Positions 12,682 to 47,833 of a stretch of 48,746 bases of DNA are shown in pieces. Origin of the DNA: a bacterium (lineage in GTDB: Bacteria > Hydrothermota > UBA3073 > JACQXS01 > JAQTXJ01). Below the pieces are notes generated by a model. That model did no database searches and was not told the DNA's origin. It saw only the letters and a list, made by a program, of their open reading frames with translations. The stretch is from assembly GCA_028688815.1 (NCBI GenBank), contig JAQTXJ010000007.1, positions 1 through 48,746 on the forward strand. Direction: 5' to 3'. Numbering within the stretch: position 1 is the stretch's first letter; each line of letters opens with the position of its first letter. The translations under genes and the position numbers were made by a program.

Positions 12682-14106
12682 ATGATTATAGCGGTAATAA
12701 TATTTGTAGTCGCCATAGCGGGTATTTTAACTTTCTTGCTAATTAAGAAAGGACAATCTCTAAAACAAGTCGAGACTGACCTTGACAACTTTAAAAATAA
12801 ATACAAGGATATTATTGATATTGACGGGGTAGTAGCGGAAAAGACTAATGAACTAAAAAATATTAATCAGAACATTAACAATCAAACCGCAGACTTTAGC
12901 CGACAAAAAGAGCAATTAAATCAAGACTTTCAAAATAAACGTAACATTTACGAAAATCTTCTGAATGAAATTTCAATTCTCGAGGAAAATTTAGAGGACA
13001 TCTCTTATGGATTATACAAACCACACTTCGATTATAAGACATCGGAAGAATTTAAGCAATCCCTTGAACAAATAAGGGAAAAGCAAAAGCAGATAATCAA
13101 AGATGAACAAGCAACACATTGTCCTGTTGAATGGACTGTTGAAAATAGCAGGGTAAAAGGAAAGAAAATGATAAAAGAGAGTTCAAAGCTAATGTTAAGA
13201 GCCTTTAATGGGGAATGTGATGCGGCAACTTCTAAAGTCAGCTGGAATAACATTTCCAATATGGAAGCAAGAATTCAAAAAGCCTATGAAGCATTAAACA
13301 AATTAGGTTCTACAAATCAAATTTCAATAACAGATAACTACCTTAAATTAAAATTGGAAGAGCTTTATTTAGAATTTGAATTAGAAGAAAAAATATACCA
13401 AGAAAAGGAAGAGCAAAGAAAAATTCGCGAACAAATGCGTGAAGAAGAAAAAGCTATAAAAGAAATAGAAAAAGCACGAAAAGACGCTGAAGTCGAAGAA
13501 GAAAATTATCAAAAAGCGTTGGAGAAGGCAAAGGCTGAAATCGAAAAAGCCAAAGGGCAAGAGGTTGATAAACTTACCGAGAAGATAAAACAACTTGAAA
13601 TAAATCTTAAAAAGGCACAGGAATTAAAAAGTCGGGCTATTTCACAAGCACAACTTACAAAATCTGGACACATTTACATTATTTCTAACATTGGTTCATT
13701 TGGTGACGAAGTATACAAAATTGGAATGACCAGACGACTTGAACCTATGGACAGAATTAACGAATTAGGGGATGCTTCTGTTCCATTTGATTTTGATGTT
13801 CATGGACTAATTTACTCTGAAAATGCTCCAGAGGTAGAAAACACTTTGCATAAACGTTTAGATAATAAACGACTAAACCTTGTTAATATGAGAGCAGAGT
13901 TTTTTAAGACATCCATAGATGAAATCGAACAAATAGTAAAAGAAATGAACCTAACGGTTCAGCTAACAAAACTTGCAGAAGCACGTGAATACCGAGAAAC
14001 AATTTCAATCAGAGAAGCAAAGAAACAACAAATAGATGGACAGATAGAACATAATAAAACACCGATTGAAGAAAAACTTGAAAAGTTTCCAACATCACTT
14101 GATTGA
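12682..14106 (+). CDS. Membrane-anchored DUF4041 protein with T5orf172 (GIY-YIG-like) domain
   Basis: The 474-residue protein starts with one membrane segment (residues 1-22), followed by a coiled coil (about 28-105). A DUF4041-like region comes next (about 110-225, with CPVEWTVENSRVKGKKMIKES), then a highly charged Glu/Lys coiled coil (about 230-325) and a T5orf172 domain (about 330-420: GHIYIISN, YKIGMTRR, then VENTLHKRL). T5orf172 belongs to the GIY-YIG nuclease superfamily, and the GIY-like residues, the Arg and the Glu are present. Relatives are common on phages and in accessory islands, but the function is not established. The frame is closed upstream by a stop at 12667, so the ATG is firm. 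Confidence 0.75.
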   Translation: MIIAVIIFVVAIAGILTFLLIKKGQSLKQVETDLDNFKNKYKDIIDIDGVVAEKTNELKNINQNINNQTADFSRQKEQLNQDFQNKRNIYENLLNEISILEENLEDISYGLYKPHFDYKTSEEFKQSLEQIREKQKQIIKDEQATHCPVEWTVENSRVKGKKMIKESSKLMLRAFNGECDAATSKVSWNNISNMEARIQKAYEALNKLGSTNQISITDNYLKLKLEELYLEFELEEKIYQEKEEQRKIREQMREEEKAIKEIEKARKDAEVEEENYQKALEKAKAEIEKAKGQEVDKLTEKIKQLEINLKKAQELKSRAISQAQLTKSGHIYIISNIGSFGDEVYKIGMTRRLEPMDRINELGDASVPFDFDVHGLIYSENAPEVENTLHKRLDNKRLNLVNMRAEFFKTSIDEIEQIVKEMNLTVQLTKLAEAREYRETISIREAKKQQIDGQIEHNKTPIEEKLEKFPTSLD

Positions 14107-14251
14107 CAAAATATTGTATTTCCCTGTCCTGTTTATCTGCGAATATCTGCGTCCAAGAATTTTTTGTCTTCTAATCTTTTCTTAGCGTCTTTGCGACTTA
14201 GCGTGAGAAATTATCTGTTTTTTATTGTTTTTAATCTCTTAAATTCTTAGC

Positions 14252-14373
14252 AAGCCCTTTCCAGCTACGCTGGATTACTTACAATCCCTTATGCTAATTA
14301 GGGAAAAGATTGTTGAGCATTGGCGAAATCCCGTCTAGGCTGGATTGTCCGGAATTTTTTGCCGGAGGGATTT
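14252..14373 (+). repeat. Composite hairpin repeat, long nested form
   Basis: AAGCCCTT, then the hairpin TCCAGCtacGCTGGA, then AATCCCTTATGCTAATTAGGG, then about 40 bases not found in the other copies, then GTCCGGAATTTTTTGCCGG and AGGGATTT. Apart from that extra block it matches the interior of the copy at 23521 almost base for base. Confidence 0.8.
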
Positions 14374-14376
14374 CTT

Positions 14377-14447
14377 AGAAACTCTTAGGCGTTAGCCTTA
14401 GAGTTTTTTATCCCGTAGCGAAGCGTTGGATATCCCGCAAAGCGGGG
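14377..14447 (+). repeat. Composite hairpin repeat (AGAAACTCT arm)
   Basis: The variable stem AGAAACTCT...AGAGTTTTT (one G-T wobble) encloses a small AGGC-GCCT hairpin. It is followed by TTATCC and a divergent tail ending CCCGCaaaGCGGG. Confidence 0.65.
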
Positions 14448-23357: not shown

Positions 23358-23390
23358 ATGGCTATATATATAAATTCGCCGTTTGGGTAG
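23358..23390 (+). pseudogene. Truncated start of the second pair gene, copy A
   Basis: ATG at 23358, four bases after the preceding stop with a GAGGAG site, reads MAIYINSPFG and then hits TAG. The ten codons are identical to the start of the intact gene at 23672. A hairpin repeat begins right after codon 10. Confidence 0.9.
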
Positions 23391-23436
23391 GAAGCCCTTG
23401 AGTCCGCTTCAAGCGGACGATTAGGGATTGCTATCC
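23387..23436 (+). repeat. Composite hairpin repeat inserted in start copy A (short form)
   Basis: AAGCCCTT, then GTCCGCTTcAAGCGGAC (perfect hairpin), then TTAGGGATT and GCTATCC. This is the shortest member of the family seen here. Confidence 0.8.
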
Positions 23437-23491
23437 GTGTTGAATGCGTAAACTATTAATTTGTCTGTTGAAACAGGTAAAAGGAGGTGTT

Positions 23492-23524
23492 ATGGCTATA
23501 TATATAAATTCGCCGTTTGGGTAG
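23492..23524 (+). pseudogene. Truncated start of the second pair gene, copy B
   Basis: ATG at 23492 behind AGGAGG again reads MAIYINSPFG and TAG. It is the same fragment as copy A but with the leader used by the intact gene. Confidence 0.9.
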
Positions 23525-23616
23525 GAAGCCCTTTCCAGCTACGCTGGATTACTTACAATCCCTTATGCTAATTAGGGATTGTTGTCCGGAATTTTTTACC
23601 GGAGGGATTGCTATCC
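23521..23616 (+). repeat. Composite hairpin repeat inserted in start copy B (long form)
   Basis: AAGCCCTT, TCCAGCtacGCTGGA, AATCCCTTATGCTAATTAGGGATT, TCCGGAATTTTTTACCGGA, GGGATT, GCTATCC. The interior is shared with 14252 and 36536, while the outer parts equal copy A. Confidence 0.85.
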
Positions 23617-23671
23617 GTGTTGAATGCGTAAACTATTAATTTGTCTGTTGAAACAGGTAAAAGGAGGTGTT

Positions 23672-24448
23672 ATGGCTATATATATAAATTCGCCGTTTGG
23701 AGAGATTAGAGGTAAACTTGGTGGAGTCGTCGGCACAAGATTGCGAGGTAAAAAAATCGTAAGAATTTATAGAAAACCTAAGAAAGATCCCGGCAGTATA
23801 GCCTTACTTAAAGAACTGAAAAAAGGTAAAATATCCGCTAAAGAAATGAATATCAAAATAGTAAACGTTCGGTTTTTGTTTAAGTTCTTTTCAGGTATGT
23901 CTAAACAGAAATATTCTTCTATTATAGTTCCCGTATGGTCCAACATAGCAAAAGTCTACCAGAACACTCCTTCAAATATGATACATAAATTTAATGTCCC
24001 TGTTTTGTTTAATTCTATACCTGATAAAAATAAACTTTGCGATGAAACAAATATTTTTGATGTGTCGAAAATTGCTTTTACACCGGAAACTTATACACCC
24101 CCCTTTTCCATATCTTCAAACTATAATCCGGAAACCGGGGAAATAAAAGTAAGCTGGCAGGTTACCAAATGGTTTTATGATGCCAAACCTGAAGATAAAG
24201 TCTTTTGCATAGCGGTGTATTTTAAACCAAAATCTCTTTTACTATGGGAACCCAAGAAAGACCCCTGGAATATTTTCAAAATATGGGGAACTGCATTAGT
24301 TCCTGTCGCGCAGTGGAAAGATGAACAAGCTTCTTTGCCAATAGACCCGAATCTTAAACCCGAATACCTGACTACTTTTTTCTTCTTTCAATACTCGAAT
24401 AAACGATATTCAACAACCTATTCCGCCAAACAGGAAGCATTTGCCTAA
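23672..24448 (+). CDS. Unknown protein with GEIRGKL N-terminus, second of a pair (intact copy)
   Basis: This 258-residue protein starts at 23672 (MAIYINSPFGEIRGKLGG) behind AAAAGGAGG; the track start at 23624 lies in the duplicated leader. It is a distant paralogue of the preceding gene, with a basic N-terminal region (TRLRGKKIVRIYRKPKK). The C-terminal half appears beta-rich, possibly fibronectin-like (YNPETGEIKVSWQVTKW). No signal peptide, membrane segment or catalytic motif is visible. Two truncated copies of its own start precede it, each interrupted after codon 10 by a hairpin repeat, so only this third copy can give a full protein. Confidence 0.75.
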   Translation: MAIYINSPFGEIRGKLGGVVGTRLRGKKIVRIYRKPKKDPGSIALLKELKKGKISAKEMNIKIVNVRFLFKFFSGMSKQKYSSIIVPVWSNIAKVYQNTPSNMIHKFNVPVLFNSIPDKNKLCDETNIFDVSKIAFTPETYTPPFSISSNYNPETGEIKVSWQVTKWFYDAKPEDKVFCIAVYFKPKSLLLWEPKKDPWNIFKIWGTALVPVAQWKDEQASLPIDPNLKPEYLTTFFFFQYSNKRYSTTYSAKQEAFA

Positions 24449-24711: not shown

Positions 24712-24757
24712 TTTGTTCCTGTTCTTCTTTCTTCTTTCTTCCTCACTCAACTTATAG

Positions 24758-24833
24758 AAAGCCCTTGCCTGCCCGCCGATTTTCTTGGAGGGAAGCTTTA
24801 GCGATTAGGGATTCGTATCCAGCTTAGCTGGGC
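24758..24833 (+). repeat. Composite hairpin repeat overlapping the gltX stop
   Basis: AAAGCCCTT...TTAGGGATT with one G-T wobble, then CGTATCCAGCttaGCTGGGC. The TTA in the loop of the tail hairpin is the gltX stop codon on the other strand. Confidence 0.8.
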
Positions 24834-28786: not shown

Positions 28787-29124
28787 TTGCCTTGAATTTA
28801 GTTAACAAACTTATTATATCTTAACTCTTTCCATATTTGAAGTTCTGTAATAATTCTCTGTGCTCTCTGCTTTTTCTCTCTTTTTCTGTTATTTTTTAAC
28901 CTTCTATTCTCTTTTTTTAGTTGGAGTTTGTTTTATCAAAAACATTACTCCAACTTATCCAGCTCAGCTGGGCTCTGTGGTCTCTTTAGACAGGTATTAT
29001 TTCCCGTATTCTGCTTTAATCATTAGCATCTCACGGATCCAAATTGTATTCTCCTCTCTGCGTTCTCTGCGTCTCTGCGGTGAAAATTTTTGTTGTCTGT
29101 TTCTCATTCTGAAATCCGAATTTT
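28787..29124. other. Repeat-filled spacer between uppS and cdsA
   Basis: It holds word-like DNA (CTGTGCTCTCTGC; CTCTGCGTTCTCTGCGTC at about 29055) and one composite hairpin (28919-28973). No gene; the ORF at 28860 is read through repeats. Confidence 0.7.
28919..28973 (+). repeat. Composite hairpin repeat (AGTTGGAGT arm)
   Basis: AGTTGGAGT...ACTCCAACT (perfect nine-base arms, 19-base loop) followed directly by TATCCAGCtcaGCTGGGC. A type example of the family. Confidence 0.88.
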
Positions 29125-33159: not shown

Positions 33160-33520
33160 ATTTTGATGGTATATTAATTTGCTATAATGTCAATAAATTA
33201 TCCCCATTCTTCTTTTCCTTTCTCTTCTCTGTGCTCTCCTTTTTCTCTCTGTGCTATCTATAGTTTTTGTTTTATTTTTTTCCTGTTATTTTTAACTTTC
33301 TACTGCTTTTATATCCTGTTAATCCTGTTTAGAAGCTCTTTGCTTGTTTAGAGCTTCTTATCCAGCTCTGCTGGGCTAAATTTTCTTATTCTAATTTTCT
33401 TTTCTCTGTGTACTCTGTGGTTAGATTTTTCTGTTCTCTGCGGTGAAGAATTTTTATCTGTTTTTCTGTTACAATTAGTTACAATCTATCTCTACTTGTT
33501 ACCATTTATTACTATCCCCA
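33160..33520. other. Repeat-filled spacer
   Basis: Word-like DNA (CTCTGTGCTCTCC, TCCTGTTAATCCTG, GTGTACTCTGTGG, TTCTCTGCGGTGAAG), one composite hairpin (33331-33376) and a run of TTACAATTAGTTACAAT words at 33470-33520. A TTGACA lies at 33193-33188 on the minus strand without a clear -10. Confidence 0.65.
33331..33376 (+). repeat. Composite hairpin repeat (AGAAGCTCT arm)
   Basis: AGAAGCTCT...AGAGCTTCT (perfect nine-base arms, 10-base loop) followed by TATCCAGCtctGCTGGGC. Confidence 0.88.
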
Positions 33521-34928: not shown

Positions 34929-35150
34929 TCTTTTTTCGTAAGAGTTGTTAATTCTTTTTTTAAATTACCCCGCCCTTTAGAGCGGGGGTATAAAACAATC
35001 TCCTACCTGTGCTAGTCTTTCGGGCTTTAGCGCATAAGTAGTATAATTTTCTGTTATTTGCGTCCATTCGCGGATAAATCTTTTCGTTCTTTGTTCGTTT
35101 TTTGTCCCTAAAATTTTTCTGTTTTTTCTTTAGTCCGTATAAATCCGTTT

Positions 35151-35253
35151 ACAAACTCTTGGGGAACAACCCTTAGAGTTTGTTATCCAGTACGAAGCCC
35201 TTGGAACTTTAGCTCTTAGGGATTCGTATCCAGCCCTCTGGGCTCAGCTGGGG
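35151..35253 (+). repeat. Two chained composite hairpin repeats
   Basis: The first is ACAAACTCT...AGAGTTTGT (perfect) with TATCCAG. The second begins six bases on as GAAGCCCTT...TTAGGGATT with CGTATCCAGC and a GGGCTCAGCTGGGG tail. One element appears to have landed in the tail of the other. Confidence 0.82.
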
Positions 35254-36345: not shown

Positions 36346-36535
36346 ATTTTTTTCTCCTCAAGGTTAAAATGACACAAACAGTCTTTTTTACAATTTTTTC
36401 TATACTATCTTCTCTGTGCCGTCTTATGTGAAACTTTTTTTTAGTATAGTTTCTATCTCTTTCTGAGATTTGTTAATCCGTTTAACTTTGAATTTTCTTT
36501 TTTTATTTGCGTTTATCTGTGTCCATCTACGGTAG

Positions 36536-36636
36536 AAAGCCCTTGGAGCTTTAGCAATTACTTACAAGCCCTTATGCTAATTAGGGATTGTTGTCCGGAA
36601 TCTTTTACCGGAGGGATTTCTATCCAGCTCCGCGGG
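36536..36636 (+). repeat. Composite hairpin repeat, long form
   Basis: AAAGCCCTT...AGGGATTT outer stem. The interior contains CCCTTATGCTAATTAGGGATTG and TCCGGAATCTTTTACCGG, also present at 14252 and 23521. Tail TATCCAGCtccgcGGGGG. Confidence 0.82.
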
Positions 36637-37868: not shown

Positions 37869-38159
37869 AAAAAGATTTTCACCGCAGAGACGCAAAGAAC
37901 GCAAAGAACAGAAAATAAAATTAAACCACAGAGAACACTGAGAAAAAAGAGAATTTAGAGTTAACGAAAAAAAGATAACAGATATGGAGAGAAGAAAGAA
38001 AGAGGGCACAGAGAATTCCGCCAGTTTTGCTGGAAATTTAGATTTTGGTTACATTCTCTTTTTGCCCATTGGGCAAATTAGAGAATGTTATCCAGCTTTG
38101 CTGGGCATTTGAACTTTTATTTATTAATAATTGTATAAAACTTAGAAAAGGGAGGAAAA
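37869..38159. other. Spacer with reverse-oriented word DNA and composite hairpin
   Basis: TTCACCGCAGAGACGC and AACCACAGAGAACACTGAG words (37876-37945) are the reverse complement of the TCTCTGCGGTGAA words elsewhere. A composite hairpin follows at 38051-38106, then a GGGAGG site for the symporter gene. Confidence 0.7.
38051..38106 (+). repeat. Composite hairpin repeat (ACATTCTCT arm)
   Basis: ACATTCTCT...AGAGAATGT (perfect nine-base arms) with an inner TTTGCCCattGGGCAAA hairpin, followed by TATCCAGCtttGCTGGGC. It lies 53 bases before the symporter ATG and may be in its leader. Confidence 0.88.
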
Positions 38160-47756: not shown

Positions 47757-47833
47757 TGGTTGCGGGGGTAGGATTTGAACCTACGACCTTCAGGTTATGG
47801 GCCTGACGAGCTGCCAGACTGCTCCACCCCGCG
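47757..47833 (-). tRNA. Initiator tRNA-Met (CAT), CCA encoded
   Basis: A complete 77-base cloverleaf. The acceptor is CGCGGGG/CCCCGC with an unpaired C1-A72, which marks an initiator. It has D arm GGAGCAGTCTGGCAGCTC, anticodon loop CCCATAA, T arm GTAGGTTCAAATCCTAC, discriminator A73 and genomic CCA. The anticodon stem is TCAGG/CCTGA, so one of the usual three initiator G-C pairs is replaced by A-T. Confidence 0.96.

What the first reader, a model, noticed from the sequence alone, without database searches (positions are those of the whole stretch)
14252..14373. Shared interior modules in distant hairpin repeats suggest nested insertion or cassette exchange
The interior CCCTTATGCTAATTAGGG...GTCCGGAAT..TTTACCGG appears at 14252, 23521 and 36536 inside different outer stems, while the tandem units at 23387 and 23521 have the same outside and different interiors. 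The 14252 copy carries about 40 more bases inside the shared interior. This looks like repeats landing in the loops of other repeats, or exchange of loop content between sites.
Basis: partly seen in the sequence, partly recalled or inferred. Interest (0 to 1): 0.6.

Follow-up and report, generated by a model that had tools for sequence, protein, structure and literature searches.

The report
Nested hairpin repeats that swap interiors
This bacterial genus carries more than a hundred short two-hairpin DNA repeats per genome that appear to jump about, land inside each other's loops and swap loop contents; similar behaviour has been described in algal and yeast organelle DNA, but I found no report of it in bacteria.

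Summary
The 14252, 23521 and 36536 copies belong to a genus-restricted family of double-hairpin repeats: about 129 ends of one class in this genome, about 46 of another, background counts in 38 other genomes of the phylum. All follow one grammar: TTA/TA, 5' arm, small variable hairpin ending in TT, 3' arm starting with A, TATCC, second hairpin. Another whole element can sit at exactly one place, between that TT and A, always in the same orientation (12 versus 0), down to three levels. Arms and inner stems covary.

The sister species (JAQUPX01) gives direct tests. One outer element holds an inner element in this genome and is empty in the sister. Whole composites have clean or near-clean empty sites. 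Orthologous elements with the same flanks carry different loops. In this window two tandem units, identical outside, carry different interiors, each shared with distant copies. "One long ancestor plus deletions" is disfavoured, because inner and outer parts also exist alone and the modules reassort. The extra 40 bases at 14252 are not a private insertion; they mark a long form found in both species. The mobilising enzyme is unknown. Closest precedents are Volvox organelle palindromes and yeast mitochondrial GC clusters.

The parts
14247..14447 (+). Composite at the finding: outer class-A element (arms TAGCAAGCCCT 14248-14258 and AGGGATTTCT 14366-14375; outer TATCC and second hairpin CCCGCAAAGCGGG at 14431-14447), interrupted by a following element
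   Evidence: sister species lacks all of it
14259..14276 (+). P2 loop hairpin TTCCAGCTACGCTGGATT, identical to the one at 23533
   Evidence: (D11)
14278..14365 (+). Inner module, long form: P3 (ACAATCCCT...AGGGA..GATTGT), 40-nt stretch about 14305-14344, P4 hairpin TCCGG-aattttttg-CCGG
14375..14430 (+). Second element, TTA-GAAACTCT-loop-AGAGTTTT-TTATCC-hairpin, inserted in the right end of the outer element
   Evidence: window + 14377
23388..23436 (+). Tandem unit 1: class-A element, interior GAGTCCGCTTCAAGCGGACGATT
23522..23616 (+). Tandem unit 2: class-A element with same arms and outside as unit 1, interior = P2 + short inner module (23551-23602)
   Evidence: four-way junction, z -5.2
23437..23521 (+). 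Repeat unit between the elements (leader plus gene head ATGGCTATATATATAAATTCGCCGTTTGG), repeated at 23617-23700; a head alone at 23358-23386
   Evidence: D6, D7
36533..36625 (+). Class-A element with P2 GGAGCTTTAGC and short inner module (36561-36611), followed by second hairpin
24755..24820 (+). Class-A element with enlarged P2 loop
   Evidence: window + 24806
35191..35231 (+). Simple class-A element, directly after a TTA-CAAACTCT element at 35149-35188
28917..28960 (+). TTA-GTTGGAGT...ACTCCAAC-TTATCC element (class D); absent from the syntenic gap of the sister
33329..33363 (+). TTA-GAAGCTCT...AGAGCTTC-TTATCC element
38049..38093 (+). TTA-CATTCTCT...AGAGAATG-TTATCC element

Best explanation
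These are copies of a non-autonomous, mobile, two-hairpin DNA element confined to this genus. Each copy is TTA/TA + 5' arm + T-(small variable hairpin)-TT + 3' arm + (T)TATCC + second hairpin (CC...GG). The unpaired TT before the A of the 3' arm is itself an insertion site for the same kind of element, so copies land there in fixed orientation and build nested composites; the CTTACA...CCGG module is such an inner element that became fixed as a part and now travels with its host. Separately, the interior between two arms can be replaced wholesale by the interior of another copy, probably by short-homology recombination or template switching between arms, which would also keep arms complementary. 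Shown: grammar, covariation, same-orientation nesting, one empty nested site, empty sites of whole composites, loop differences at orthologous and tandem-duplicated elements. Inferred: that spread is by transposition, the route of loop exchange, and the direction of the module event. Unknown: the enzyme.
For: Genus-limited multicopy family; the longer inner pattern occurs in GTDB contigs only in the sister species. Grammar against controls. Covariation: NN positions complementary 67 and 62 of 92 against 32 expected; P2 stem of 4 bp or more in 40 of 73 loops against 3.5 shuffled; composite helices 94.7% paired, 7 pairs with two-sided changes, covariation score 0.218 against 0.096 shuffled. Nesting: 12 same orientation, 0 opposite, 0.33 expected; list with arms, including three-level cases L187 and L083. 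Empty sites: nested site filled in G000 and empty in G001 (k=17); whole composite at G000:C30:6167 against a clean empty site in G001; window composite absent in G001; G001 composite at C7:95313 absent in G000. Loop replacement: window tandem units, C138/C2 and C53/C1 (k=75 and k=18), C13/C4. Module reassortment: table of 24 composites.
Against: No transposase could be tied to the family: Y1_Tnp is absent from G000 and the three in G001 sit in other REP families; RVT_1 and the TnpB zinc-ribbon family were not found. No constant target-site duplication. No orthologous pair shows the outer element with and without the CTTACA...CCGG module alone. Only two genomes of the genus are held, both MAGs.
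Confidence: 0.68

Rival explanations
1. One long ancestral composite element, with simple copies produced by repeated precise deletion of the inner module.
For: All inner modules sit at the same place with the same junction CTTACA...CCGG and composites are found in both species.
Against: Un-nested simple copies outnumber composites several-fold and lack deletion scars; inner-type elements occur alone; other element classes nest at the equivalent site and one such site is empty in the sister; outer class and long/short form occur in all four combinations.
Confidence: 0.12
2. Structured RNA or DNA regulatory elements (terminators, processing signals) under selection for fold, spread by ordinary duplication and recombination, with no mobility of their own.
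For: Strong covariation and a four-way-junction fold; all window copies are intergenic.
Against: No Rfam match; copies are scattered without gene context, with clean or near-clean empty sites in the sister, and insert in each other.
Confidence: 0.1
3. Loops and arms change by replication template switching (quasi-palindrome correction), so 'exchange' is local mutation and the similarity of interiors at distant sites is convergence.
For: In the G000 copy of the C138/C2 locus the loop hairpin CCAGCTTTGCTGG equals the adjacent second hairpin (k=75); compensated arm changes between orthologs (k=17, k=18).
Against: Over 73 elements the loop hairpin is never identical to the element's own second hairpin; interiors are shared over 50-69 nt with distant copies, too long for convergence.
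Confidence: 0.1

Closest known systems
Short palindromic repeats of Volvox carteri mitochondrial and plastid DNA (Smith and Lee 2009, PMC2670323)
   Same: Short (about 50 nt) hairpin repeats filling intergenic DNA; the paper states that one repeat is often found inserted within another, giving larger elements at several places; TTTA/TAAA loops.
   Different: Organelle, not bacterial; single hairpins with 3-5 nt loops; found in both orientations; that organelle encodes a reverse transcriptase, none was found here; no orthologous empty nested site was among the passages read.
Yeast mitochondrial GC clusters, GC42 and relatives (PMC4478555)
   Same: Mobile palindromic elements with constrained stems; merged and stand-alone forms at the same homologous site; merger and shuffling of units.
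   Different: Mitochondrial; putative AG target duplication; changes concentrated in loops, stems conserved; here arms vary with compensation and nesting is at a fixed neck site in fixed orientation.
Double-hairpin elements of fungal mtDNA and repetitive hairpin elements of sponge mtDNA (discussed in PMC2800124)
   Same: Two adjacent hairpins, multicopy, intergenic, proposed mobile.
   Different: No nested insertion mentioned in the passages read; stems conserved, loops variable; different sequences and host.
REP/REPIN sequences with RAYT (Y1_Tnp) transposases
   Same: Bacterial, short, intergenic, non-autonomous palindromes; the sister genome encodes three RAYT-like genes.
   Different: Those genes are flanked by other REP families; none in G000; no paired-inverted REPIN layout; recursive nesting is not a REPIN feature as far as I know.
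IS200/IS605-derived non-autonomous elements (PATE-like; from general knowledge)
   Same: Subterminal hairpins, fixed orientation next to a short target such as TTA(C), no long target duplication.
   Different: No detectable Y1_Tnp in G000 or TnpB-type protein in either genome; hairpin abuts the left TTA directly; no autonomous partner found.

Membership tests
REP/REPIN-RAYT | RAYT (Y1_Tnp) gene in the genome | tested here: not met
   none in G000; three in G001
REP/REPIN-RAYT | Element copies directly flank the RAYT gene | tested here: not met
   the three G001 genes are flanked by other palindromes
IS200/IS605-derived MITE | Partner Y1 transposase and/or TnpB in the genome | tested here: not met
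   no Y1_Tnp in G000, RAYT-like only in G001, no PF07282 hit in either
IS200/IS605-derived MITE | Fixed orientation at a short target without target duplication | tested here: inconclusive
   12 same against 0 opposite orientation at TT^A; most sites show 0-1 nt, one shows a 5-nt direct repeat GGTAG
Volvox-type nested palindromic repeats / GC clusters | Repeat inserted inside another copy of the family | tested here: met
   (k=17)
Volvox-type nested palindromic repeats / GC clusters | Merged and stand-alone forms at the same homologous site | tested here: met
   G000:C53 nested, G001:C1 outer only; one locus
Double-hairpin element | Two adjacent hairpins joined by a short linker | tested here: met
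   second hairpin with a stem of at least 2 bp in 68 of 73 simple copies, 5 bp in 34 (no shuffled control)
Known structured RNA (Rfam) | Match to a curated family | tested here: not met
   only a tRNA at 47760-47833
Any mobile element | Observed transposition | not testable with these tools
   uncultured MAGs; only presence/absence between species

The most novel reading that the evidence does not exclude
A bacterial mobile element with a truly recursive design: each copy carries, in the single-stranded neck of its own hairpin, the target for further copies, so elements grow by self-nesting and their interiors are traded like cassettes, through a single-strand DNA mechanism whose enzyme is not one of the families searched.
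Probability: 0.3. Interest if true: 0.72.

Novelty: new variant of a known kind. Interest (0 to 1): 0.52.

Why it matters
It gives a bacterial case, with orthologous empty sites, of palindromic elements nesting in and trading loops with each other, which was described from organelles without a known enzyme. Two sister genomes with dozens of orthologous loci make the open question of how such palindromes spread and stay complementary directly testable. It also warns that covariation alone need not mean a functional RNA: here covarying arms come with mobile repeats.

Tried and rejected
Single long ancestor with deletions: disfavoured. Known RNA family: no Rfam hit. RAYT as mobiliser: absent from G000 and tied to other REPs in G001. 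Reverse transcriptase: none. IS91-type Y2 transposase: no hit, but the control did not ring either, so inconclusive. TnpB-type: none. Horizontal vector: no hit in IMG/VR or plasmids. A general rule that loops are copied from the element's own second hairpin: not supported. A first generic hairpin scan ahead of TATCC was too noisy in coding DNA. Orthologous sites for the 23387/23521 and 36536 copies themselves: not found in the sister.

Full report
**What is there.** The window is contig G000:C26 of a 2.67 Mb, 157-contig MAG. A sister species of the same genus, G001, is held; it is the GenBank MAG JAQUPX01, 'bacterium isolate STD1_36', sample Sandtown_D1. The phylum could not be named with the tools at hand.

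**A large family.** The right end AGGGATTNNTATCC has 129 hits with at most one mismatch in G000 against 10 for the reversed-pattern control, and 40 and 36 exact hits in the two genomes of the genus against 0-2 in each of 38 other genomes of the phylum. A second class ending A[G/C]TC[T/C]AACTTATCC (searched as ANTCNAACTTATCC) has 46 and 44 hits in the genus and 0-3 elsewhere. The inner hairpin CCCTTATGNNAATTAGGG has 11 and 6 exact hits, and a longer version occurs in GTDB contigs only in the sister. IMG/VR and plasmids gave nothing.

**Anatomy.** A strict search for TTA + 8-nt arm ... complementary arm + TTATC[CT] finds 61 cases in the fetched DNA against 0-8 for control leads and tails. The arms vary widely (GTTAGACT, GTTGGAGT, CTTGGACT, CAAACTCT, CAAGCCCT, GAAACTCT and more). 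A looser class, TANNAAGC[C/T]CT ... AG[G/A]GATTNNTATCC, gives 97 copies. Most simple copies then show a second hairpin starting at the CC of TATCC and ending in GG (at least 2 bp in 68 of 73, 5 bp in 34, no shuffled control). The fetched DNA was chosen around hits, so these counts are not genome totals; searches are.

**The fold is kept by paired changes.** The two NN positions are complementary in 67 and 62 of 92 copies against about 32 expected when partners are shuffled; where several left arms were possible the best-pairing one was taken, which inflates this slightly. The loop hairpin P2 has a stem of 4 bp or more in 40 of 73 loops against 3.5 after shuffling, with 52 distinct loop sequences. 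In 12 short composites the three conserved helices are 94.7% paired, with seven pairs changed on both sides; sliding the partners destroys this. The 23521 copy folds as a four-way junction with z = -5.2.

**Nesting.** Every P2 hairpin ends in TT and every 3' arm begins with A. At exactly that TT^A point another whole element can sit. Twelve of 94 class-A/B elements lie there inside an outer TTA-arm...arm-TTAT stem in the same orientation; none lies in the opposite orientation, and 0.33 are expected by chance (examples). The CTTACA...CCGG module occupies the same point in the class-A/B elements: 24 composites were collected. In L187 and L083 there are three levels, outer D, class A/B, module. 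Relatives of the module occur alone, for instance TTACAAGCTCTTATGTTAGTTAGAGCTTGTTATCC at G001:C6:142739.

**Tests in the sister species.** Orthologous DNA is 80-95% identical. (i) G000:C53 carries a class-B element inside an outer element; G001:C1 has the same outer element, with compensated arms, and nothing inside (k=17). (ii) At G000:C30:6167 a whole composite lies in CGTGGTAG...GGTAGGTTTTC; G001 reads CGTGGTAGGTTTTC. (iii) The window's 14252 composite is absent from G001. (iv) The composite at G001:C7:95313 is absent from G000. (v) At C138/C2 the same flanks and right end enclose different loops, GACGATAGCC and CCAGCTTTGCTGG (k=75). (vi) At C13/C4 the loops also differ. (vii) At C53/C1 (k=18) AAC/GTT has become ACC/GGT and the loop differs. 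(viii) C111/C4 shows a conserved element (k=78). These are species differences, so gain and loss cannot be told apart at single sites.

**Interior exchange in the window.** Units 23387 and 23521 share 98 nt at 100% on one side and 42 nt on the other, including an unusual G.G mismatch in the arms, so they are copies of one unit. Their interiors are unrelated. Unit 1 matches a different loop subgroup (L066 in G000, 92% over 50 nt; L095 in G001, 94% over 49 nt). Unit 2 matches 14252 at 98% over 57 nt. One interior was therefore replaced after the duplication, or the duplication joined two elements within their arms.

**The extra 40 bases.** 14252 and 23521 share P2 and the rare AATTTTTT loop, yet one is long and one short. 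The long stretch recurs in other copies of both genomes. Outer class and form occur in all four combinations, and P2 types occur with both forms. That is reassortment, not a private insertion.

**Mechanism.** Copying to many places, fixed orientation, little or no target duplication and hairpins throughout fit a single-strand DNA route such as that of IS200/IS605 or REP systems. No such enzyme could be tied to the family: Y1_Tnp absent from G000 and RAYT-like genes with other palindromes in G001; no RVT_1 or PF07282; PF04986 uninformative. I therefore commit to mobile, self-nesting double-hairpin elements with interior exchange, enzyme unknown.

**Comparison.** Nested palindromes are described from Volvox organelles (PMC2670323), and merger and shuffling of palindromic units from yeast mitochondria (PMC4478555). 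I found no bacterial report in the papers searched, which is a limited test.

Noticed in passing
window 23358-23700; G000:C30 about 395-760 (L074); G001:C5 about 190,600-191,000 (L098): At three loci the head of a gene, with its leader, is repeated and a hairpin element sits right after each head, leaving truncated heads before an intact gene. At the window and G001:C5 loci the genes belong to one divergent family (MAIYINSPFGEIRGKLGGVVGTRLRG...).
   Followed up: partly
G001:C2:340959, C2:182982, C2:227740 (L204-L206): Three RAYT-like Y1_Tnp genes in the sister, each flanked by its own palindrome family; the third lies in the region syntenic with window about 26.4-26.8 kb, and no Y1_Tnp was found in G000.
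   Followed up: partly
window 12682-14106: Gene next to the finding encodes DUF4041 plus a T5orf172/MUG113 domain (GIY-YIG-like).
   Followed up: no
G000:C13:157-342 and G000:C146:2640-2926: Tandem arrays of whole elements, four copies at 51-nt and four at 91-nt period.
   Followed up: partly
intergenic DNA throughout the window (e.g. 15592, 22319, 28854, 33225): Much of the intergenic DNA consists of older degenerate repeats (TCTCTGCGGTGAA, TTATCCGTGGCTAAT, AATCCTGTTAATCCTGTC); several serve as insertion targets of the hairpin elements.
   Followed up: partly
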